This document shows, piece by piece, positions 42,936 to 54,920 of a DNA stretch of 64,000 nucleotides. Each line of letters opens with the position of its first letter. Positions within the stretch are counted from its first letter, which is position 1. The position numbers and the translations under genes are program-made. The stretch lies in contig QYRS01000006.1 in assembly GCA_006503535.1 (NCBI GenBank), positions 1,550,001-1,614,000 on the forward strand, read 5' to 3'. A model generated the notes under the pieces. It had not been told where the DNA came from and searched no databases. It worked only from the letters and a program-made list of their open reading frames with translations. Origin of the DNA: Arthrinium phaeospermum (Eukaryota > Ascomycota > Sordariomycetes > Amphisphaeriales > Apiosporaceae).

Positions 42936-43745
42936 TCAATCAGAATAGAATTGGTTATCGCGCGCAAAGGCCACGGGCGGCAGACCACCGCCGGGGCTGC
43001 GCTGCGTGAGCTGGAACTTGGAGGTGGCCGTGATCAATTCGCCCAGCTTCAGGTGGCCGTAATTGCGGGGGTCAAAATCGGGGAAGCGCTTGGTGATGAG
43101 GAGGTCCACCTTGCCCAGCGGGGCCCAGCCGTCGTCGCCGGCGACGTCGCGCACGACGGCGCGGAGCTGGTGGATGACGTTGGGGTCGATGGTGGCGGGG
43201 GCGGGCGCGCTGTGCGCCCGCTGCAGGTGCGGCTTGCGCGAGGGCGACGACGAGGGCGTGTCGTCGTTGCCCATGCCGCTGGGGGGCAGGGGCAGGTTCT
43301 GCGCGCGCTCGATGGCGAGGTTCTCGACGTAGATGAAGCGGTCGCAGGAGGCGACGAAGGGCTCGGGCGTCTTGCGCTCGCCCAGCCCGTACACGACGAG
43401 GCCGGACTCGCGGATGCGGGCGGCCAGGCGGGTGAAGGCGGCGTCGTTGGAGATGATGCAGAAGCCGTCAAAGGTGCCCATGTGCAGCAGGTCCATGGCG
43501 TCGATGATGAGGGCCGACGCGTTGGCGCTCTTGCCCTGGATGGCGAACTGCTGGATCGGCTGGATCGACTGCATCAGCAGCTGGCCCTTCCACCCCTTGA
43601 GGCCCGGGCTGGTCCAGTCGCCGTACGCGCGCTTCACGGACGCAATGCCGTACTTGGCCACCTCGGACAGGAGCAGGCCGACCGACGACGCCTGCGCATT
43701 GTCGGCGTCGATCAACACCGCTAGTTTTGTGGGGTGAGTATTCAT
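42936..43745 (-). CDS. NYN-domain (PIN-like) protein with OST-HTH/LOTUS domain
   Basis: Intronless 269-residue frame. Residues 8-140 form an NYN (LabA-like, PIN-superfamily) domain: LAVLIDADNAQ, ALIIDAMDLLHMGTFDGFCIISNDAAFTRLAARIRESG, VYGLGERKTPEPFVASCDRFIYVE. After a Ser/Pro linker, residues ~180-255 look like an OST-HTH (LOTUS) winged helix (LRAVVRDVAGDDGWAPLGKVDLLITKRFPDFDPRNYGHLKLGELI). NYN domains are metal-dependent RNases and LOTUS domains bind RNA, so RNA processing is the expected role. Its architecture is very like that of common bacterial proteins. In the usual SxDxDF metal-binding motif the second Asp is Ala (SNDAAF), which may reduce or abolish nuclease activity. GC content is as high as that of its neighbours. 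Confidence 0.85.
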   Translation of the reverse strand: MNTHPTKLAVLIDADNAQASSVGLLLSEVAKYGIASVKRAYGDWTSPGLKGWKGQLLMQSIQPIQQFAIQGKSANASALIIDAMDLLHMGTFDGFCIISNDAAFTRLAARIRESGLVVYGLGERKTPEPFVASCDRFIYVENLAIERAQNLPLPPSGMGNDDTPSSSPSRKPHLQRAHSAPAPATIDPNVIHQLRAVVRDVAGDDGWAPLGKVDLLITKRFPDFDPRNYGHLKLGELITATSKFQLTQRSPGGGLPPVAFARDNQFYSD

Positions 43746-44349
43746 GATGCCGCGAATTCTGCTGAAATAGTGATTAAAACAAGGAAGAATGGAATATGCA
43801 TTCAGTAAGATATATTAAATAGGTGTCTTGACATGGCAAAAGGGGGTTCCCCAGCTTCACGAGAATCCAATCAAGCATAAGCTGGCTCCGAGTGATTTGG
43901 TAATGTACAGATTTCAGGAGTCGACAGGTCGGCATTGGGCGCTTCGCAGCCAGAGCTGCGTACCCCGCAGTGCGCCCGTAGTGCGACAAAGCCCTTGGTC
44001 CCTGAGTTTTCCAGGGCGTTTGGCGCCTGTTACTGGCCTGTCTGGACCCTTAGCGCGGTGGAGTAGGATTACATTACTGACATGGAATCATGCAATTGGT
44101 TTCAGACTCCGGCGACGGGGTTTAGCGGTGGGATAATGGGCAACACATTAAGTGGTTACAAAAACCAATCGTGACCAAACAGACGGGTAGGTAACAGAAT
44201 AATTGACTGCTGCAATCACCCCGAATTGGCGAGGCTGCCGAGTGCTGCCAGTCGGCAGCATAATTTGGTTCGGTTGGCAATAGTGAAGAGAATTAAAATG
44301 AAAATGCAATAGGGGGCGGGGCACGATCGTGTTCAATTGCCCATCATCA
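43746..44349. other. Intergenic region
   Basis: Between the NYN gene start and the NLR stop, both on the minus strand. Nothing recognised. Confidence 0.6.
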
Positions 44350-47300
44350 TTATCCAAAACTCACCCACCGTATCTGCTGCGTGTGCCCTGCCAATTCCGC
44401 AACCTCCATGGGCGTCTTCCCTTGCTTGTTCCGCAAGTGCATGTCGCCTTTGTGCGACAGCAACGTCGGCATCAGGTCCTTGTCTCCCAGCGCCGCCGCA
44501 TGGTGCAGCGCGCTGTAGCCGTCGTGGTCCGCGAGGTTTACGTCGGCGCCCTGGAGCACCAGGTAACACGCGATGACACGACTGCGCGCGTGGACGATGG
44601 CGGCGTGCAGCGGCGTGCGCCCCTGGACGTCCGGCTGGTCGATCGGAATGACGCCGGCGGCCAGCACCGTCTGGACCAGCGCAAACTCGCCCGAGAGGGC
44701 CGCGAGGTGCAGGTAGGACTGCTGCTCGTAGTCGGCCGCCGCGCCGAGCTGCCGCGTCGCGTAAACGAGCATGGCGACGGCCTCTGGGCTCCTCGCCTCC
44801 ATGATGGCCAAGTACAAGGGCGTGCGGCCGGAGCGGTCGCTGACGTCGGGGTCGGCGCGGTGCTGTAGAAGCAGTTGGATGGCGGCGGTGCGCTTCCCCA
44901 ATACCGCGACGTGGAGAGGCGTGTGCCCGGACTTGTTCCGCACCTCCCCGCCCTTGCCGCGGACGAGAAAGGCGTCCATCACAGCGTGATTGTCCAAGGC
45001 GGTGGCGCGATGCAGCGGGGAATACCCGCTATTGTCAAGGACTTCGTAGTTTGCGCCATGGTCATGGTCTAGCAGGAGACTCACAAGCAGAGGTTGATTG
45101 TTTTCTACGGCTGTGTGAAGCGGGGTGCGGCCTTGGCTGTCTTGGGTCCCCAGCAGAGCGCCCTTTTGCACGAGCAGCCAGGTTGCCGATATGTTGCCTA
45201 GAGTGACTGCCAGTTGAAGCACCGTCCGGTCGTATGTGTTGTCCCTCAGCTCCAGATCACACCCCTGCTCGACCAGGAGCCAGAGCAAAGACTTGTCCTG
45301 AACCTTGTGCCAATCCTCGATCAGGTGATGTAGGAGTGTCCTGCCTGCTTCGTCCCTAATATCTGGATCAGCACCGGCCTTCAGTAGCAGGTACGCCACC
45401 TCGGGCCTTCCATACTCTACCGCCCACTGAAGGGGCGTCCTGTCGCCCCAATCTTGTCTATTCAGATCAACGGAAAGACCTGGCCTTTTCGATAATAGGT
45501 AGCCGATGAGCTGCGTTCTATGCTCTCCAATGGCTGCAGCTTCGCTCAGTATTAACCAGCGGTCGTAGGTTGCCGGTGTGTTGATACTAGCCCCAGCGTC
45601 AACGAGAAGTCGGACGATGCTGTCGTGATCCCTGTTGAAGGCCCACCGAAGTGCGCTATAACCGTCCTGATCCTCGGCGTCTATGTTGGCACATACAGGA
45701 AGCATCAGCTTGACGGCCCACAAAAGACCCTCACGGGCGGCGAAACGAAGTGGGGTAAAGCCTTTGTCGTCTTCGAGGTCTCCGTTCAAGTTGTAGGCGT
45801 GCTCGAGCAGTATCCTGATACTCCATTCGTCCTGATTGGATGTTGCAAGATGAAGTGGTGTCCTCCCTTTGGCGTCTTGGGCATTAGCATTCGCCCCTTG
45901 TTCCAGCAACACTTGCAGTATACGGCGTTGATGAAATATTACTGCCCAATGAGTTGCGGTGTAAGACATAGCTGCGCCGGTATCAACATGGACGGCCACG
46001 TTATTTATCGAGTGCAAAACAAGTTCTTTTGACCCAAAGAACGTTGCTATATGCAGAGCCGTTACATCAGGTTTGAGATGGGAGGGGATGGTGTCCATGT
46101 ATTCCGCAGCTTCTGAAACCTTTCCTTGGTCTCCCAGTAATTCCAATGCCAGCCTAGAAACTTCAGGGTCCACGCGTGCACGGCGGAAGTGGTATCCCCA
46201 ATGATCCGCGGCATATGTCAAATACGCTGACCTATCGGAAGAGACGCGATGTGAGTCATCGGGCATGTGGGCACTGGACAATTCCAGAAGGTCGTGCAGG
46301 CATCTTTGGGCCAGTTGGATATGTGATTCTTTGCAGCGGACATACGCCTTGCGCTCCAGGTACTCGTGCGCGGTATAGTGGAACAAGCGAACAATACCGG
46401 AGTCGTCAACAGTGACCAACCCGGCACAAATGGATTCCAGGGTATGGCTGTTGACTGTACGGGCAACTTGCTGACCCGCCACGGCCTGACTGAACTCAGC
46501 GATGGAAAGTGGTCGGGCAGCATAGCATACCCAGCTAAGAGCTGCCAGTGCAATCTTCCTTTTGGACTCATGTTTGGCCTCGAGTCGGCGTAAAGCGCGT
46601 TCGTAGAAGTAGGCTGAATCTGCGTGGAAACCCTCAATCGCGTCCTCGCTCGGGTTCGTTTCGAGGGCATTCATCTGTAGTCGAGCAAGGAGGAAGCTGT
46701 ATTGTGTCATGTCAGTCGGGCGAGTGAGCTAGGACTCTAAGGCTCTGCAGACTGTACTCACTTTCCTTGCAACTTGGTCACAAGTTTATCATGGTTCTTC
46801 CCTTCGACAGCCATTGCTCGCTTGAGAACATCTGAGCGGCCAATCCTCCACTCCATGAATGCCGCTAGGTCCTTGGTGCTTGCCTGGATCGGAATTCTTT
46901 TGTCGAATTTAACGGATTCGGCGATGGTCTTGTGGCCTCGGGAGGTGACTAGAACCTTGAAGATTCCCGGCAGATTTGAGATAATCTCCATCATGATTTG
47001 AGGTCGTCTCTCATCGGTATCGTCAAAGTATTCGTCTAGTCCGTCCAGGACGAGGTATACTTGGTGGAACGCAGCTGCTTCTGCCTCTAGCTGATGCAGA
47101 TACACGAGGTGGTTCGATAGCTCATCTGCTTCCCCTGATTCCTCACACACACTCGCCGTCTCCGGCAAGGCATATGGTTTCTGGTACAGCAGCTGTGACA
47201 AAAGGTCAGCCAAGATGGCCGCAGGAGTCTGCTTCTCACGTTGCTGGTAATCGAAGTACATGTAAAGAACCCCTCTGGTCTTTGCATCCTGTAGTCCTCT

Positions 47301-48056
47301 TTGGTAAATCACATCTCGAAGATGACGAATGATCTTTGCTCTGGGCACAGTTAGCCAACGCTACAACGCCTATGGGCAACTGAATCGTACGCCAACACGG
47401 TTTTGCCGACCCCAGCTAAGACTCGGTCAGATACAGCTGAATGCTTCAGGCGCATTTGAATAACAACGTACCTTTTCCAAAACACCAAAGGTGATTGAAC
47501 TCTCCACGTTGCCATTGAAGAAACGTATCATCTTCCAGTATCCAGTCACCGGTGCTAGGCACAGCTTGCGCAGTTTCTTCATGCTGCCGATGCGTCTTGC
47601 TAGAACCAAGTCGTGCAAGCTTTCTCAACCTTCGGGCGACCCGCCTCGGAGAAACAGCTATATTGCAGATTCCGAGGTAAGTCGATACTCTAATCTGTGG
47701 CTCATCGTCGCATTACATACCCCGGGTGTTTACTATGGTTTCTTGAAAGTAGATTAGCTTATATTAGCTGGATGCAAGTCTTGTGTAATGCCCGGGGTAA
47801 AGATTGCGTACTGTATTTGATGTGACCTCCAACTGAAAGTGAGTTGGTAATCGTAGAGTTGAGGTATGTTGCTTTGGCAGAGCCTTTGACTTCTTCTCAT
47901 TGTTAGTCAGCCCGGACTTTTTACCGACGTCTCATACGTACCAAACCCCACGCTGCCACCTACTGCAACATCCTTTGCAACAACAGAATGGTCGGCATTA
48001 CCAACGACAACGCGATCCACATTAGGGGGTCCTTGTCGGCCTCTTTCGTCGTCCAT
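44350..48056 (-). CDS. NLR-type protein: amyloid-like N-terminal motif, NACHT, ankyrin repeats
   Basis: Six exons (48056-47942, 47883-47812, 47687-47472, 47415-47391, 47340-46762, 46696-44350) join in phase to 1117 residues. Residues 1-62 are a short Gly/Val-rich N-terminus with a GNADHSVV...GFG motif and a weaker second unit (NSTITNSLSVGGHIKY), no folded effector domain. Then HEETAQAVPSTGDWILEDDTFLQW leads to the NACHT: P-loop AGVGKT (135-140, on a 25-nt exon of its own), Walker B VYLVLDGLDEY (237-247), sensor VTSRGHK, and a winged helix ALAALSWVCYAARPLSIAEF. About 15 ankyrin repeats fill residues 544-1110. Fungal NLRs with ankyrins sense non-self or damage and trigger effectors through motif templating. 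The last codons (RW then GTGAGT) could be a donor to a further small exon; I see no clear partner. Confidence 0.82.
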
Positions 48057-49204
48057 TGCGAGAGTCTCGATGTTTCAATTAGCGACAAACCAAGCATCTG
48101 CGCACAAACCGAAGTTTACATGAGTGGAACTGGGGAAACTTGGTTGTGGGGCTTGAGACGCAAAATGCTTTGGAACAAGTACTGGTTCTCGCAAGTAGGC
48201 TTAACTCTGCACCTGCGCCTTTCTTGCCTGTCTCTTTTATCGTAAGTAGCTGCCTTCAAGCGGCAGTCCAGGCACACTGTGTTCGCTTGGGAGAGCTTAG
48301 CGCATCTCAGCCTGCCTACTGTAGCATCGTGTTTGTTATCTTCCCGACACCCCTGTGTGCGGTAACCCCGGGCCCAAACTTACGAATCGAGACGAGCGCT
48401 GCCAGTGTATCCACCAACTACGTTGCTCACCGAAGCGCCTCTTCAGTTACCGCCATGCAGCCCCCTGCAGGTCACCGCCCGCACGCTGATTAAAAGGGAA
48501 GGTGGAAAGGGTGGCATCTGGGAGATAGGAGATCTGCGACAGCCACGGAGACAGCCTTTGACTATTTTACATGGGCGTCGCTCAGGATATTCCTAAGCTT
48601 GCTTACTGATTCGGACAGTGGAGCAAGTTCCGATGCTGGAAAGCTCAAATCGGGGGTTTATGTGAACTTCCGTGCGGATGGGTGCTGACTGTGACCAGGC
48701 TCTGGCAACACCCCCAGCCCTACCAATGCCAATAGTATCAGCCGAGGGATACTACACACACACTCCCAGGACTCACCTGCGGGGTCAGTGGGCAAGTGGG
48801 CTAACTGCGACAAGGATTGCTGTCTGCTGTCAGCTTACTCGACCAGTATGTAACCCTGCAATGTTTTGGACCCCACCCCAGCCTTCTTGTTCTATTTCCA
48901 TACATACTTCACCAAGGATTACCAGAAGGCCTATGGGGTAGATTGATTGCCCAAGCAGAAGGTGTGAGGCAGGACGGCAGGGGGTATACCGATGTATGTG
49001 CTCCTCTCAACAGGATGAGCCATTTGTTTTCTTTCGTCGTTTCTTGGTATCCACTGGCCTGGGCGTGATCTTTTAATTATGCCATTGGCAATCGTCCAAG
49101 GTCGATTAGTTCCACCTTTTTGGGGTATACAATCTTTTCAATCGATCCTTCCATCCTATGAGCGAATAAGACCGCAGAACAAGTTTCTGCCTTGAAAAAG
49201 CGGC
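48057..49204. other. Intergenic region between divergent genes
   Basis: Upstream of the NLR (-) and of the coiled-coil gene (+). No effector gene and no copy of the shared motif is visible here; only short unconvincing frames. Confidence 0.5.
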
Positions 49205-52138
49205 ATGCCGGACAGTCTCAAAAGCGACTCCAGCAAGAACGGTCCAAATGATGTATTGGACGATGACGCCGAGATACGATATGCAACCGGAGTTCCCAAG
49301 CGGCCAGAAGCTCCGGCACCACCACCCTCGCGACAACCACAACCCAGTGGCAGTGGAACCGTCAAGGACTTCCCAGACGGTGATGCACCAAATCCTGGCG
49401 ACCATGAAAGAGATGGTAAACAGCCAAAGACCAGTGACCGACAGAGAACTCTGTTTGTCACTGGGGAGCCATCGGGTGAAACAGTACAAGTCCCTTTCAC
49501 AGGAAACCCCAAGATCGCAGTTCGAGCCCCCAGTGATCCGGATCGCCTGCCACAGGATACCTGGAGTGATCAGGTAGAGCATGATGGGACCGAGCAGGGA
49601 CAATGGGGGCTTTCTGACGCCGAGAATGACCCTCATGTTGTAAGATCGCGAAGATCTCGGGCGGGCCAAGGACCTACTACAGATCACTCCCGGAAACGAG
49701 CCGAGGACGGTGTGAGGGTCGGCACTGCCCGGAACCGCGCCGTGCACATACCACGAACAACAAATTTCGGGGGGCCTGGCAAGGATGAGACGTACGCAGG
49801 CCGTAGGTATGAAAACCTGGATTCTGCTTATCGAGATATGCCACCTAGGCCGGCGGGACAAATGGCACCTTATCACAGCTACTCTAGATATCCGAACCCA
49901 TTTGCAGGGCCGGATGAGTACATTCAACCACCTTACTTTGGAGGACCGAACCACTACGCACCAAATATGGGTCCTTATCCAAACCAAGCACTCACCTACG
50001 TACAACCGATGGGTTACGGCCAACCAGGTTCTTACCAGGCGTCTCAATACCCCTTTACTTATGGCTATCTACCACCTCAACCATTCCCCCCCTACAACGC
50101 TCCTCCCCCGCAGCCGCCATGGACTCCACCAGAATCACGACCGGTACCAGCGCCATCTGCACGAAATCATGCTCATTCCAAGGATGACATGAATTCAATG
50201 CTGAACAAAGTCTTGAGAGAGTTGGAAGACAACAAAAGGAAGCTGGCGGATAAGGACGATCTCATCCAGAAGTTCAGGTCCAAAGACAGAGAGAGCGAGA
50301 TATTACACAAAGCAAAAACGACGGAAGCCCGGGCACAGCAAAAGGAGGAACAGGCCAAGATTGAGCTGGAAGCTGCTAACCAAAAAAGGCTAGAGGAGGA
50401 GAAACTGGAACTGGCCAAGCGAGAGCACCAGGAAAAGCTGAACCGGGCGGAGGCCGAAGTCAGAGAGCAGCTGGAGAAAAGAATACGTGAGGAAGAAAGA
50501 CTCAGAAAAGCCGAAGAGCTGAGACTCGAGAATCTGGAAGCCGACCTCCGGAGACGAATCGAGGCCGAGATTGCCGAGGAGCAAGAGCGCCGGAACAGAG
50601 AAGCCGAGAAGCGGCTGTATCTCGAGATGGAGATCAGGGAAAAGATCATGGCAGAGAGGAGAGAGCAGGAGGAGATGACGCTCAGAGAGGAGCTCCGGAA
50701 ACAGCAGATCGAGAAGCGACTCGAGCACGAGTTTGAGATGAAGCGACGGAGAGATGCTGAGCTTCAACAGCATAAAGAGAACATCGAAGCACGGTTCAGG
50801 ATGGAAGCCTCACAGATCATCAGTGCTGAAAAACGGAAATTGGACCTGGAAAAGCTCAAGCTCGAGATTCAACAAGACACCAACCGAGTCATCAGGGATA
50901 CGATGCAGGCGCCACCGGACTCGGCATCGAGTATCAGTTCGAGTATCAGTCAATCGGAGCCAGATGAGACCACAGCAAGTTTTCACCGCCCGTCGGTAAA
51001 CGTGAATGATTATCTTGATCCTGATCAGCGCACAGCTACCAGCGACGGAGTGCGCCAAAATTACGCCCATTCCCAGACGGATGCCCCGAGTGCTTACGAC
51101 CGTATCAACCACGACACGCAGCCCATTTTGTACCATTCCAACCATGGTGATCTCTCGGAGACAATGGTGCCGCAAACGAAGAACCGGTCCACCCCGTTGC
51201 CCTCTTGGACAAGCATCAGTGCCCAGGTCGGATCTTCTCGGCCAATCTCGCAACATACCGAAATAGGGCGACCGGAGAGCGTACGCCAGCACCTCTACAA
51301 CCACAACAGAAACCCGTTGACCACGCAGCAATACCGGCATGTCGGGTCTCAGCAGCACCTTCACCAGCCGACCCCGGTGCACCAGCCAAACCCATTCAAT
51401 ATACTGCGAGGGATGGCGGCGGCAATGCCATCGCCTTCGGGCCTCAGCTCCAACATCAACATCCCGAACCCCCACAGCGAAGCTGATCAGTTCAGTCCAG
51501 GCCTGACAGAAAGAAACCTACGGTCGCAGGACCAATCGCGCATCGACAGCTCCCTCCAGGCTCATGTCGAAAGTGAAATCGGTTCCGAGCCCGGAGGCGC
51601 TTCTAGCTTTCGGCAACGTGCCTCAAAGATACGGATCGCCCCAAGCACCGGACAAACCTGGTCGCCGCCTTCCCACACGGCCCATCCCGATCCAGTAGAT
51701 GTACATGGAGCACCCATGAACCCAAACCCGGCGAACCCCCCTCGTGCCCGCGTGGGAAGTACTGATATGATGCGGCGGGCGCATACTCGGGGCTATCCAA
51801 TTGCACTGAGCGCCGACACTCCCCTTTCACCGCCAGATCCCGACGCGGCTCCGGCGCCCACGCCGCCGGGCGTAACAACCAACATCAGAGGCTCTCCGCC
51901 ACGGACGGCGAGCACCGCGGGATCCCTACCGTTCAGGTCGGTCTCCAGCTCTTTCGGTGGCGACAACTACCACACCGCGAGGGACTCTTGGAGCCCCGAA
52001 GCTCACCCCAAGCTGAGCAGGTCGGAGATGGGATCTTCCCAAGAGTTCCCCATGTCGGAAGGGAGTAGACCTGTTTCGGGGGCGTCGCAGAACCAACACA
52101 TGCCACAACTGAAGCGGATGAAACGGTTTTCAAGATGA
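49205..52138 (+). CDS. Long coiled-coil protein with disordered flanks
   Basis: Intronless 977-residue frame. Residues 1 to about 320 are low-complexity, first charged, then Tyr/Pro/Gln/Gly/Asn-rich (SYSRYPNPFAGP, PQPFPPYNAPPP), prion-like in composition. Residues ~325-590 are an almost unbroken highly charged coiled coil (LEEEKLELAKREHQEKLNRA, RIREEERLRKAEELRLENLE). The C-terminal ~380 residues are again disordered, Ser/Pro/His-rich, ending QLKRMKRFSR, a basic tail. No enzymatic domain. The arrangement suggests a self-associating scaffold that may form condensates; function unknown. It sits between the NLR and the two other motif-bearing genes but I do not find the shared motif in it. Confidence 0.75.
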   Translation: MPDSLKSDSSKNGPNDVLDDDAEIRYATGVPKRPEAPAPPPSRQPQPSGSGTVKDFPDGDAPNPGDHERDGKQPKTSDRQRTLFVTGEPSGETVQVPFTGNPKIAVRAPSDPDRLPQDTWSDQVEHDGTEQGQWGLSDAENDPHVVRSRRSRAGQGPTTDHSRKRAEDGVRVGTARNRAVHIPRTTNFGGPGKDETYAGRRYENLDSAYRDMPPRPAGQMAPYHSYSRYPNPFAGPDEYIQPPYFGGPNHYAPNMGPYPNQALTYVQPMGYGQPGSYQASQYPFTYGYLPPQPFPPYNAPPPQPPWTPPESRPVPAPSARNHAHSKDDMNSMLNKVLRELEDNKRKLADKDDLIQKFRSKDRESEILHKAKTTEARAQQKEEQAKIELEAANQKRLEEEKLELAKREHQEKLNRAEAEVREQLEKRIREEERLRKAEELRLENLEADLRRRIEAEIAEEQERRNREAEKRLYLEMEIREKIMAERREQEEMTLREELRKQQIEKRLEHEFEMKRRRDAELQQHKENIEARFRMEASQIISAEKRKLDLEKLKLEIQQDTNRVIRDTMQAPPDSASSISSSISQSEPDETTASFHRPSVNVNDYLDPDQRTATSDGVRQNYAHSQTDAPSAYDRINHDTQPILYHSNHGDLSETMVPQTKNRSTPLPSWTSISAQVGSSRPISQHTEIGRPESVRQHLYNHNRNPLTTQQYRHVGSQQHLHQPTPVHQPNPFNILRGMAAAMPSPSGLSSNINIPNPHSEADQFSPGLTERNLRSQDQSRIDSSLQAHVESEIGSEPGGASSFRQRASKIRIAPSTGQTWSPPSHTAHPDPVDVHGAPMNPNPANPPRARVGSTDMMRRAHTRGYPIALSADTPLSPPDPDAAPAPTPPGVTTNIRGSPPRTASTAGSLPFRSVSSSFGGDNYHTARDSWSPEAHPKLSRSEMGSSQEFPMSEGSRPVSGASQNQHMPQLKRMKRFSR

Positions 52139-52629
52139 TAAGCGCAATACACCAATTTATTAACCATAGCTAGAGTATGCGGAATGAGGATCTGGTATAG
52201 AATATTCATGACACGTAGCCGAGATGTTTTAACGTTATGAAAAGTGTGGGGAGTGAATAGCCCCTGTTTCCTCCAACCAGCGGGGATCCTAACAAAAAGG
52301 AAAATTCCATATGACGTAGTAGTCTGTCATCTTGATAAATGAAACAGACATTTCGTGTTGGTATGAGAGGCCAGACCGACATTTGGGTAAGTTGCCTTAC
52401 CCAAATGTGACATCGTCGTCGGCTGTAACCTTTTCGCTCACCACGGAGGATGCGACGTTGCCTCCAACACAAATAGCCTTTTTGGAATGGACTTCTGTAT
52501 GTACAGATCTCTTTACATCCCCGTGGGCCTTCTGTATGTACACGATTAAATCAAGTTGGCATCGCTGGTTTGAAAAGGATAATTGGCCCTCTGTGGGCTG
52601 CTAGGGAGCTTTTACATACCGTTTCAGTC
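52139..52629. other. Intergenic region between convergent genes
   Basis: 3' flanks of the coiled-coil gene (+) and the 119-residue protein (-). It contains a direct repeat gtatgtacag(a)tct / gtatgtacacgat near 52497-52545 and nothing else recognised. Confidence 0.5.
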
Positions 52630-53043
52630 TCACTCATCGCCGCTGCCGTGGAAGTCGATTCTCAGGTAAGCGACTGAGTCATCCCAATAGAGGGTTTTCT
52701 CCCGTTCTTCTAAAAGTAAGGGAGGGAAATAGTATAACGAACCGAATTTAATTTTCTTGCCGTGAAAGTTCTCTGCCACCACGGATTTCTGCACATTGCC
52801 AAGAATCTCCACCCCTTTATGCTTTTCCGCCTTGCTCTTATCGGTGTGCGCCTTGTGCTTCTCATCATGCTACGATTGCTGTTAGGGAGACTTTCATTGG
52901 TCGCGACCAGGAATATTGCCTACCCGGGCGTCGGGTTCCGTGGCAGCTCGATGCCCATCCAATCTCACACCCTCTTTTGGGGTCCCTCTCAAATCTGACA
53001 AGGTGGTGATAGTGGTAGAACCGGATTTTCTCGAAGTCGACAT
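52630..53043 (-). CDS. Small protein (119 residues) with central amyloid-signalling-like motif
   Basis: Two exons: 53043-52924 (40 codons) and 52869-52630 (80 codons with stop). The 54-nt intron has a GTAGGC donor, a CCTAAC branch point and a TCGTAG acceptor, and both exons are phase 0. Residues 1-58 are polar and disordered with a Lys/His-rich run (HDEKHKAHTDKSKAEKHKG). Residues 59-83 carry GVEILGNVQKSVVAEN...KIKFG, which aligns with the NLR N-terminus and the hydrolase C-terminus: G-N at 64-65, Ser at 69, F-G at 82-83. The last 36 residues (SLYYFPPLLLEEREK...VAYLRIDFHG) are hydrophobic and acidic, possibly membrane-interacting. It has no known domain. It is divergent from the hydrolase gene with 562 bases between the starts, as expected for co-regulated partners. 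Confidence 0.6.
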
Positions 53044-53605
53044 GGTAAGTAACGCCCGACGACTGGGTCTCGTATGTGGATCACAGGGAGATGGGTGTCA
53101 GTTACAAGATTGGGGGGTGATGGAACGAACGGGCAAGGCGTTTTTTTTTGTTGTCGGGGGGACCTTGTGCCTACATTAAATACAATTCGTGGGACCAGGC
53201 AGGCGGTTGGTTGCCCTGTCTTCAGGCATCGGGTTAGTCTTGGCAAATGGGAAAAGGCCTCCAACGCAAAATGCTGCCTTTCGGATGAGCATCCAAGGCA
53301 TACTCGAGCCCCGCGTGAGATAGACTTAGCGGCACGCCCGTGCCGATGATAATCGGACTCCCCAGCCGAGGGTGTATGCCTTGGCTGCATCAAAGGCACG
53401 AATGAACCGCCTCCAAGTCGCATCCAGCCTCTGATTGGGTGCAGCGTAGACATCCCCTTGTATGGCCCCACACACCACCTACCATCCTTGACACAGCCTG
53501 CTTCTCTCCCACGTAAAGCCTCTGATCTCCTCACGCACAGATTTGGAGGAATGCCCGACTAAGTGAGCGTTTGAAAGAAAGCCCATACTTCCGCGAAATT
53601 TCAAA
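53044..53605. promoter_or_regulatory. Shared divergent promoter region
   Basis: 562 bases between the start codons of the 119-residue motif protein (-) and the alpha/beta-hydrolase (+). A bidirectional promoter would co-express the two motif-bearing genes; no specific binding sites are claimed. Confidence 0.4.
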
Positions 53606-54920
53606 ATGACATTTTTGACTCGAAGGTCCTGGACATCGTCCGAGAGGACCATCGTAACAGACGACGCCACGCCCCCGAAGTACGGGATCAAAGCTCTGTA
53701 TGAGCCGACGGAGACGGCAGAGGCCGCTGTAGAGTAAGTTCAGTACCCCCGCGCCCAATATGCCTCAGTGAGACGGCTCTTGGGGGCCACCTACAAGGGT
53801 GGGCGGTGCGCGGACTGAAAGCTGACGCATCCCTGAAAGTGTGGTTTTTGTTCATGGTCTCAAAGGTGACCGCGACCGAACCTGGACCGCGCCGGGCTCC
53901 GACTCCTCCTGGCTCGAGACTTTGTTACCACCCGAGATCCCTGATTGCCGCATCCTTACCTACGGCTACGATTCGAATCCCGTCAGCGTGCGTGGCGTGG
54001 TGTCCAGCAATACCATCGGCAACCATGCGAGAAATTTCCTCAATCTGCTCACCTCGTACAGAGCCCAGAGCCAAAGCGTATGTTGCGTATGCGCCGATGT
54101 CACGGTGCCAATTTGCTAATAAGCCTAAAGGTCGACCGGCCAATCATATTGGTCGCCCACAGCATGGGCGGGCTGATGTGTGAAGATGTGAGTAGCGACA
54201 CCGCCATCGGATAGGGTATCTTACTGTCTATCATACACTGAAACCTATCCCCAATTATGCTAGGCTCTACTAGCCTCCCAAAATAGCTCCGAGCACCACC
54301 TACGAGCTATCCTGGAATGCACCTACGGGATCCTGTTCCTTGGCACACCCCATTCCGGCTCCGGGCTGGCAACGTCGGCCGAGCGCCTCGCCAAGCTGAT
54401 CGGGCTCATCAAGAACACGAACCCGCAAATCTTAGGTGTGCTGAGAAGGGACTCGGAAGTCCTGTCGAGGATCCAGGATGACTTCCACGCGATGCTCCGC
54501 TCCAGGATCTGCGATGGGTACCCTCCTATCAACATCTCCTGCTGCTACGAGGAGCTGCCGCTGCCAGGGATCGGCGAGGTCGTGCCCAAGACGTCAGCGA
54601 TCCTGCATGGCTATACCGCCATTGGGATTCGGAGCAACCACCGAGATATGGTGCGATTCTCTAGTCCAGAAGACTTGGGTTTTTTGAGTATTACGGGCGA
54701 GCTGAAACGATGGATTGACGACCTGAGGTCGACAGATGGCAAGATGCGGCGAAGCTTGGCAAGAGTGAACAGTCTACCCCTGAAAGGGCTCATGTTGGCG
54801 GAAGCTGCCAACCAGCCCAGTGGCATCACCATTTGGGGCAACGTGGTGCAGTCGAACGTGGTCAACGGCTCACAGACGGTAAATGGCGATATGTATTTTG
54901 GCGATTACAAGCCGGCCTGA
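53606..54920 (+). CDS. Alpha/beta-hydrolase (SesB-like serine esterase) with C-terminal amyloid-like motif
   Basis: Four exons, 53606-53733, 53840-54077, 54131-54187 and 54264-54920, in phase, give 359 residues. The N-terminal YGIKALYEP...VDVVFVHGLKGDRDRTWTAP is the classic opening of fungal serine esterases linked to NLRs. The nucleophile is Ser in VAHSMGGLM, with LGTPHSGSG further on and a His candidate in SNHRDMVRF. The last ~30 residues (328-354) leave the hydrolase fold and carry GITIWGNVVQSNVVNG...GDMYFG, a beta-prone Gly/Asn/Val segment like the motifs through which NLRs recruit SesB-type lipases in fungal cell-death pathways. Predicted role: lipid or protein ester hydrolysis at membranes after motif-driven assembly. 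That role is inferred from the family. No signal peptide. Confidence 0.85.

What the first reader, a model, noticed from the sequence alone, without database searches (positions are those of the whole stretch)
47812..54920. Three linked genes share a ~25-residue amyloid-signalling-like motif: candidate new NLR-effector module
The NLR N-terminus (residues 15-39), the centre of the 119-residue protein (59-83) and the C-terminus of the alpha/beta-hydrolase (328-354) align: hydrophobic-x-hydrophobic-x-G-N-[VA]-x-x-S, then 13-15 residues rich in V/N/G, then F-G. The Ser is exactly 4 residues after the Asn in all three. Fungal NLRs are known to signal to HeLo- or SesB-type effectors through such short prion-like motifs (HET-s, sigma and PP types). 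This one resembles them in style but I cannot match it to a named type. Two possible effectors with one NLR within 7 kb is unusual.
Basis: partly seen in the sequence, partly recalled or inferred. Interest (0 to 1): 0.92.

Follow-up and report, generated by a model that had tools for sequence, protein, structure and literature searches.

The report
Candidate new fungal amyloid-signalling motif
In a mould related to Apiospora, an immune receptor, a lipase-like enzyme and a tiny protein encoded close together share a short sequence that may pass a self-destruct signal from one protein to the next, and the enzyme's copy of it recurs in many other fungi without fitting the known classes that could be tested.

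Summary
The window is fungal; its hydrolase is 95% identical to an Apiospora marii protein. The three-way motif is more than chance: a profile built only from the two copies in the small protein ranks the NLR N-terminus first and the hydrolase C-terminus second of 2188 non-self six-frame segments; with shuffled profile columns 0 of 500 put both in the top 10. The hydrolase is SesB-like. Its tail (xxITIxGxVxxSxVVNGxQTIxGxLxF) occurs in 33 of the 120 listed relatives and has an internal 16-residue pseudo-repeat. It fails the HRAM spacing and no Pfam amyloid-motif model hits it. Most likely: a new sequence class of NLR-to-effector amyloid signalling, possibly with a motif-only adaptor. Against: no second NLR with the motif was found (limited sensitivity), amyloid formation is untested, the small gene model has no homologue behind it, and published unassigned motif logos could not be viewed.

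The parts
44350..48056 (-). NLR gene, inferred exons 48056-47943, about 47889-47813, 47657-47472, 47415-47392, 47340-46763, 46696-44350; about 1077-1122 residues by choice of acceptor
   Evidence: hand splicing at GT-AG sites (16 models without an internal stop); Pfam NPHP3_N (61.8 and 66.9 bits, cut-off 24.8), GPIID_WHD (35.1, cut-off 27), ankyrin repeats. No transcript evidence
47943..48023 (-). NLR N-terminal motif NVDRVVVGNADHSVVAKDVAVGGSVGF (exon 1)
   Evidence: first of 2188 non-self window segments for the small-protein profile; 0 of 500 shuffled profiles score as high; not found by the hydrolase profile
47813..47889 (-). possible partial second copy in NLR exon 2 (STITNSLSVGGHIKY)
   Evidence: spacing matched by eye to SVVAKDVAVGGSVGF; no statistic run on it alone
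52397..53043 (-). small two-repeat protein, best model 134 residues: exons 53043-52924, 52869-52743, 52642-52620, 52531-52397
Evidence: splice enumeration, which assumed the gene ends at the stop after copy B; 84 models passed.
52743..52815 (-). small-protein motif copy A (GVEILGNVQKSVVAENFHGKKIKF)
   Evidence: found by the profile of other species' hydrolase tails, E 0.0085; 0 of 5000 shuffles
   Evidence: E 0.0007 with the same profile; 0 of 5000 shuffles
53606..54920 (+). SesB-like alpha/beta-hydrolase, 359 residues: exons 53606-53733, 53840-54077, 54131-54187, 54264-54920 (stop included)
   Evidence: spliced model; 95% identity to Apiospora marii PG985_011060 over the whole length; Abhydrolase_6 27.1 bits, cut-off 26.3; GHSxG Ser and a His invariant in 60 relatives
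54819..54905 (+). hydrolase C-terminal motif SGITIWGNVVQSNVVNGSQTVNGDMYFGD
   Evidence: same motif in 33 of 120 listed relatives; internal 16-residue pseudo-repeat

Best explanation
A receptor-effector cell-death module that works like the known fungal NLR amyloid signalosomes but uses a sequence class of motif that I could not match to a described one. The ankyrin repeats of the NLR sense a cue and the receptor oligomerises (inferred). Its N-terminal motif copies, brought together, fold into a cross-beta seed (inferred). The seed templates the homologous C-terminal motif of the SesB-like hydrolase, which is thereby clustered and activated as a lipase or esterase that damages membranes (inferred from the family). 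The two-repeat small protein, divergently transcribed from the hydrolase and with no recognised effector domain, is the best sequence bridge between the two and most likely acts as an adaptor or amplifier that is seeded by the NLR and seeds the hydrolase, or else as a regulator (inferred). Shown here: the motif sharing, the positions, the gene neighbourhood, the enzyme family, and the conservation of the hydrolase tail.
For: Small-protein-only profile ranks NLR N-terminus and hydrolase C-terminus 1st and 2nd of 2188 segments, 0 of 500 shuffled profiles put both in the top 10; small-hydrolase link 0 of 5000 and 0 of 1000; NLR-small link 3 of 5000 and 5 of 1000; tail conserved in 33 of 120 listed SesB-like relatives although residues between core and tail vary; other SesB-like relatives carry recognised amyloid-motif tails at the same place (PF17046 in P0035, PF17106 in P0110 and P0119); AlphaFold puts strands at 325-329 and 341-345 in the tail of P0001; NLR + SesB lipase clusters with shared motifs are published (PMC5485727 section 7).
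Against: No NLR-sized protein with the motif was found: NLR residues 1-70, 92 candidates, none at E <= 10; five hydrolase tails, 561 candidates, none at E <= 10. Calibration of the scoring step alone: 19 of 32 tails, 11 of the 24 not used or nearly identical to those used, would have scored E <= 10 if placed on an NLR-sized protein, so this negative counts. NLR versus hydrolase is not significant directly, nor against the mixed profile (954 of 5000). The NLR is not adjacent: a 977-codon frame on the other strand lies between. AlphaFold of the isolated tail gave no strands (pLDDT 73.8, pTM 0.29). No amyloid assay.
Confidence: 0.5

Rival explanations
1. The tail is a conserved self-assembly or targeting element of a SesB hydrolase subfamily that works without this NLR (homo-oligomer or filament formation, membrane docking). 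The small protein is its partner or regulator, and the NLR resemblance is coincidental.
For: The hydrolase-small protein link is strong while NLR-hydrolase is not significant; no NLR with the motif was found elsewhere; another gene separates NLR and small gene.
Against: The NLR N-terminus is the single best non-self window hit of the small-protein profile and 0 of 500 shuffled profiles score it as high; it lies exactly where such motifs lie in NLRs; tails of other SesB relatives are known NLR-signalling motifs.
Confidence: 0.27
2. The small gene is the remnant of a two-repeat effector of the HET-S kind that has lost its pore-forming domain, or not a working gene; the live module, if any, is NLR plus hydrolase.
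For: No HeLo or other Pfam domain upstream or inside; coding-frame scores are best in the used frame for 3 of 3 exons tested but with small margins in two; no copy elsewhere in the genome.
Against: Two well-separated copies with a polar linker keep the motif better than drift would suggest; open frames with GT-AG introns join them.
Confidence: 0.13
3. Chance likeness of Gly/Val/Asn-rich segments.
For: Individual E-values of the NLR (0.1) and hydrolase (1) with the small-protein profile are modest; shuffled profiles put the NLR segment first in 5 of 500 trials and reached the real top score in some other segment in 16 of 500.
Against: 0 of 500 shuffles reproduce either score or the pair; the hydrolase-small link was found with a profile from other species.
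Confidence: 0.1

Closest known systems
sigma and PP clusters (HET-eN/SESA/SESB; PNT1/HELLP/SBP)
   Same: one NLR with a SesB-type lipase and a further partner sharing a C-terminal motif, genes clustered (PMC5485727 section 7)
   Different: motif sequence: no PF17046 or PF17106 hit at E <= 10 in the hydrolase, small protein or NLR N-terminus, while both models hit tails of sister hydrolases
HRAM family (HET-S/NWD2 and relatives)
   Same: a protein with two motif copies and an NLR with a copy at its N-terminus
   Different: HRAM spacing not met by NLR residues 1-150, either small-protein reading or the hydrolase, nor by any of 33 tail carriers, although the same pattern finds both repeats of this genome's own HET-s-type domain; no pairwise similarity to that domain (810, 323 and 983 of 1000 shuffles); no HeLo domain
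PUASM and GDQN motifs
   Same: short Gly-rich motifs shared by NLR N-terminus and effector C-terminus (PMC9815663 section 24; PMC12261475 section 3.3)
   Different: printed patterns absent; effector here is SesB-like, not PNP_UDP or SesA. My pattern versions had no positive control (0 of 120 tails)
Unassigned NLR motifs of Wojciechowski 2022 (NLR17, 19, 20, 34)
   Same: short N-terminal amyloid-like motifs; NLR34 is 28 long and from Ascomycota
   Different: cannot tell: logos and supplements were not viewable; the paper reports no neighbouring or effector-side copies for them, unlike here

Membership tests
NLR amyloid signalosome (general kind) | NLR with a short motif at its N-terminus | tested here: met
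   motif in exon 1, ahead of NACHT/WHD/ankyrin; best non-self hit of the small-protein profile
NLR amyloid signalosome (general kind) | homologous motif at the C-terminus of an effector encoded nearby | tested here: inconclusive
   hydrolase tail 5.5 kb away ranks 2nd with the bridge profile, but the direct NLR-hydrolase comparison is not significant
NLR amyloid signalosome (general kind) | recurrence of NLR/effector motif pairs in other genomes | tested here: inconclusive
   effector side recurs (33 of 120); no NLR side found; neighbours in other genomes not viewable
NLR amyloid signalosome (general kind) | motif forms amyloid and cross-seeds | not testable with these tools
   needs peptides or tagged expression
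HRAM | N/Q/H at 3, hydrophobic at 5, 8, 10, 16, 18 and Gly at 19 (PMC4518210 section 5) | tested here: not met
   no match in 4 sequences or 33 tails; positive control matched twice
HRAM | HET-s Pfam model PF11558 | tested here: not met
   no hit at E <= 10; model does find another locus of this genome at E 6.9e-17
sigma | NACHT_sigma PF17106 | tested here: not met
   no hit; hits P0110 and P0119
PP | PF17046 (called PP in PMC12261475), NxGxQxGxN core | tested here: not met
   no hit, pattern absent; PF17046 hits P0035
PUASM | FxGxGxQxxGxGxF with PNP_UDP effector | tested here: not met
   pattern absent, effector is a hydrolase; no positive control for the pattern
SesB-like hydrolase | alpha/beta-hydrolase fold with GxSxG nucleophile | tested here: met
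   Pfam, relatives named sesB-related, invariant Ser and His, Foldseek best match thioesterase 8w2c E 3.1e-8 for the P0001 model

The most novel reading that the evidence does not exclude
A three-step amyloid relay in which a motif-only, two-repeat protein is an obligate adaptor between an NLR and a SesB lipase: the receptor motif seeds the adaptor and the adaptor, not the receptor, seeds the enzyme, which would explain why adaptor resembles both partners while they hardly resemble each other. The motif would be a new fungal class built of two consecutive strand-Gly-strand units 16 residues apart.
Probability: 0.2. Interest if true: 0.82.

Novelty: new variant of a known kind. Interest (0 to 1): 0.6.

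Why it matters
Fungal NLR pathways use few described amyloid motif classes, and the review and surveys seen here describe discrete classes that may keep pathways apart. A class tied to SesB lipases, with the effector side conserved across many genera, would add a pathway; a motif-only adaptor would be a fungal analogue, by layout, of adaptor-based inflammasomes. It is directly testable with the tagged-motif assays already used for other classes.

Tried and rejected
HET-s kinship: rejected by Pfam, by PDB sequence search of the two-repeat region (no match), by spacing and by pairwise shuffles against this genome's own HET-s-type domain. The PDB search with the tail profile A1 gave five weak matches (E 0.18-4.5), all to repeat regions of clostridial proteins, taken as chance. 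Other copies in the genome: protein searches with the small protein, the NLR N-terminus and the hydrolase tail each found only their own place (the first look is heuristic). Sigma and PP models found nothing in the genome, but their control was silent. HeLo remnant upstream of the small gene: none. Coding-bias test: weak; for NLR exon 1 an antisense frame scored higher. String search of papers for six tail words: none. A search for Apiospora with NLR or amyloid gave nothing specific.

Before counts: P0003 (tail differs after NGTQT) was dropped from the 33 carriers when the 32-tail profile was built. P0018 has the motif by eye but is missed by my pattern, so 33 is a lower bound. Only 120 of 597 hits were listed and examined.
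Full report
WHAT IS THERE. The window is part of a 48.4 Mb assembly in 19 contigs. Its hydrolase is 95% identical over its whole length to a protein of Apiospora marii, and the next five hits are other Apiospora, so the source is an Apiospora or close kin (inference). On the minus strand lies an NLR with NPHP3_N/NACHT, a winged-helix domain and ankyrin repeats; then a 977-codon frame on the plus strand with no Pfam family; then a small gene on the minus strand; then, 563 bases from its start and divergent, a four-exon alpha/beta-hydrolase on the plus strand.

THE SMALL PROTEIN HAS TWO COPIES. A second copy, ending in FG and a stop, lies 0.3 kb downstream. Enumerating GT-AG introns gave 84 open models that join both, the best of 134 residues; that enumeration assumed the gene ends at the second copy, so it shows that the join is possible, not that it happens. 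The result is copy A, a polar linker and copy B, the layout of HET-S-type prion domains, but with no effector domain in front.

IS THE MOTIF MORE THAN CHANCE? Three independent tests. First, a profile made from 32 hydrolase tails of other sequences finds in the six-frame window only the hydrolase and both small-protein copies above threshold; shuffles 0 of 5000 for each copy. Second, a profile made only from the two small-protein copies ranks NLR exon 1 first and the hydrolase C-terminal frame second among 2188 other segments. Against: the hydrolase profile does not find the NLR (951 of 5000 shuffles as good), a mixed profile does no better (954 of 5000), and the pairwise NLR-hydrolase score is matched by 831 of 1000 shuffles. 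So the chain is NLR - small protein - hydrolase, with a strong right link and a moderate left one.

THE HYDROLASE TAIL IS A CONSERVED MOTIF. Of 597 relatives, 120 were listed; 33 of these carry the tail by a simple pattern, and P0018 by eye. Named carriers include Apiospora, Neoarthrinium, Neopestalotiopsis, Monosporascus, Xylaria, Nemania, Microdochium, Thelonectria, Podospora, Phialemonium, Halenospora and Acephala. In the alignment of 19 tails Gly7, Ser12 and Gly23 are invariant. The tail is two consecutive units, (I/V)TIxG(N/D)h and QTIxG(N/D)h, 16 residues apart: self-similarity at that offset is reached by 1 of 2000 column shuffles, and the best offset of 5-20 by 3 of 300. Other SesB relatives have different tails at the same place, some recognised as amyloid motifs (PF17046 in P0035; PF17106 in P0110, P0119). 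AlphaFold on P0001 with 60 sequences (pLDDT 74.2, pTM 0.72) gives the enzyme core and strands at 325-329 and 341-345 in the tail at pLDDT about 59-74; the isolated 43-residue tail gave no assigned strands and pTM 0.29, so structure prediction is inconclusive on the motif. Foldseek places the P0001 model among thioesterases and lipases (best 8w2c, E 3.1e-8; 242 matches at E <= 0.001). Ser130 and His264 are among the invariant columns of 60 relatives.

KNOWN CLASSES. HRAM requires N/Q/H at 3, hydrophobics at 5, 8, 10, 16, 18 and Gly at 19 (PMC4518210 section 5). None of the four sequences tested fits, nor any of the 33 tails, whereas the same pattern finds both repeats of the genome's own HET-s-type domain, found by PF11558 at C1:1996141-1996338. 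PF11558, PF17046 and PF17106 do not hit the three proteins at E <= 10. PUASM and GDQN patterns from the papers are absent, but these and the PP patterns matched none of 120 tails, so they had no positive control. The logos of unassigned motifs in PMC9815663 (NLR17, 19, 20, 34) could not be seen, and supplements were not available; NLR34 is the one that could coincide. Six words of the tail occur in no paper of the library.

RECURRENCE ON THE NLR SIDE. A search with NLR residues 1-70 met 92 candidates, none at E <= 10. A query of five hydrolase tails on an NLR-sized body met 561 candidates, none at E <= 10. Placing each tail on an NLR-sized protein, 19 of 32 would have scored E <= 10; that calibrates scoring only, not the word filter, and 8 of the 19 were used in the query or nearly identical to those used. 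So an NLR with a hydrolase-like motif is unlikely to be common among close relatives in that database, while a diverged one, like the NLR here, would have been missed.

MECHANISM. By position and family the parts behave like an NLR amyloid signalosome: receptor oligomerisation, N-terminal seed, templating of effector tails (PMC12881547 passages; PMC5485727 sections 6, 7, 14 and abstract). One receptor with a lipase and a further partner is the PP and sigma layout. The small protein differs from those partners in having no recognised effector domain, and it resembles both neighbours better than they resemble each other, which suggests an adaptor; a decoy, regulator or remnant remains possible. 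Every step of signalling is inference.

PAPERS, what was seen: PMC9815663 abstract, sections 6, 19, 24 and passages; PMC5485727 abstract and sections 6, 7, 14; PMC4518210 abstract opening, sections 5, 9 and one passage; PMC12261475 abstract and section 3.3; PMC12258605, PMC7889193, PMC12881547, PMC4986451 passages only. Assignment of genera to classes is recalled.

Noticed in passing
G000 C1:1996141-1996338 (L027, 437-codon frame): The same genome has one canonical HET-s-type two-repeat domain (PF11558, E 6.9e-17) at another locus.
   Followed up: partly
P0038, P0046-P0049, P0062, P0070, P0100, P0102, P0104: Many SesB-like relatives (Aspergillus, Penicillium and others) end in a different conserved tail resembling GDNNRQYN..GTQK..GHYFEAKGDQNFG; Pfam gave no motif hit in P0062 and P0102.
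   Followed up: no
P0017, P0028, P0037, P0041, P0087: Another recurring SesB tail, roughly ITQGGSxFxGxTTVxGGSxFQGNF, with no Pfam motif hit in P0017.
   Followed up: no
window 49205-52138 (+): A 977-codon open frame with a charged coiled-coil-like centre and no Pfam family lies between the NLR and the small gene.
   Followed up: no
G000 C14:646089-647175 (L018, L023): A second hydrolase relative (41% identity) whose matched stretches hold several stops; introns or decay not told apart.
   Followed up: no
window 42939-43814 (-): NYN plus OST-HTH/LOTUS domain protein next to the NLR gene.
   Followed up: no
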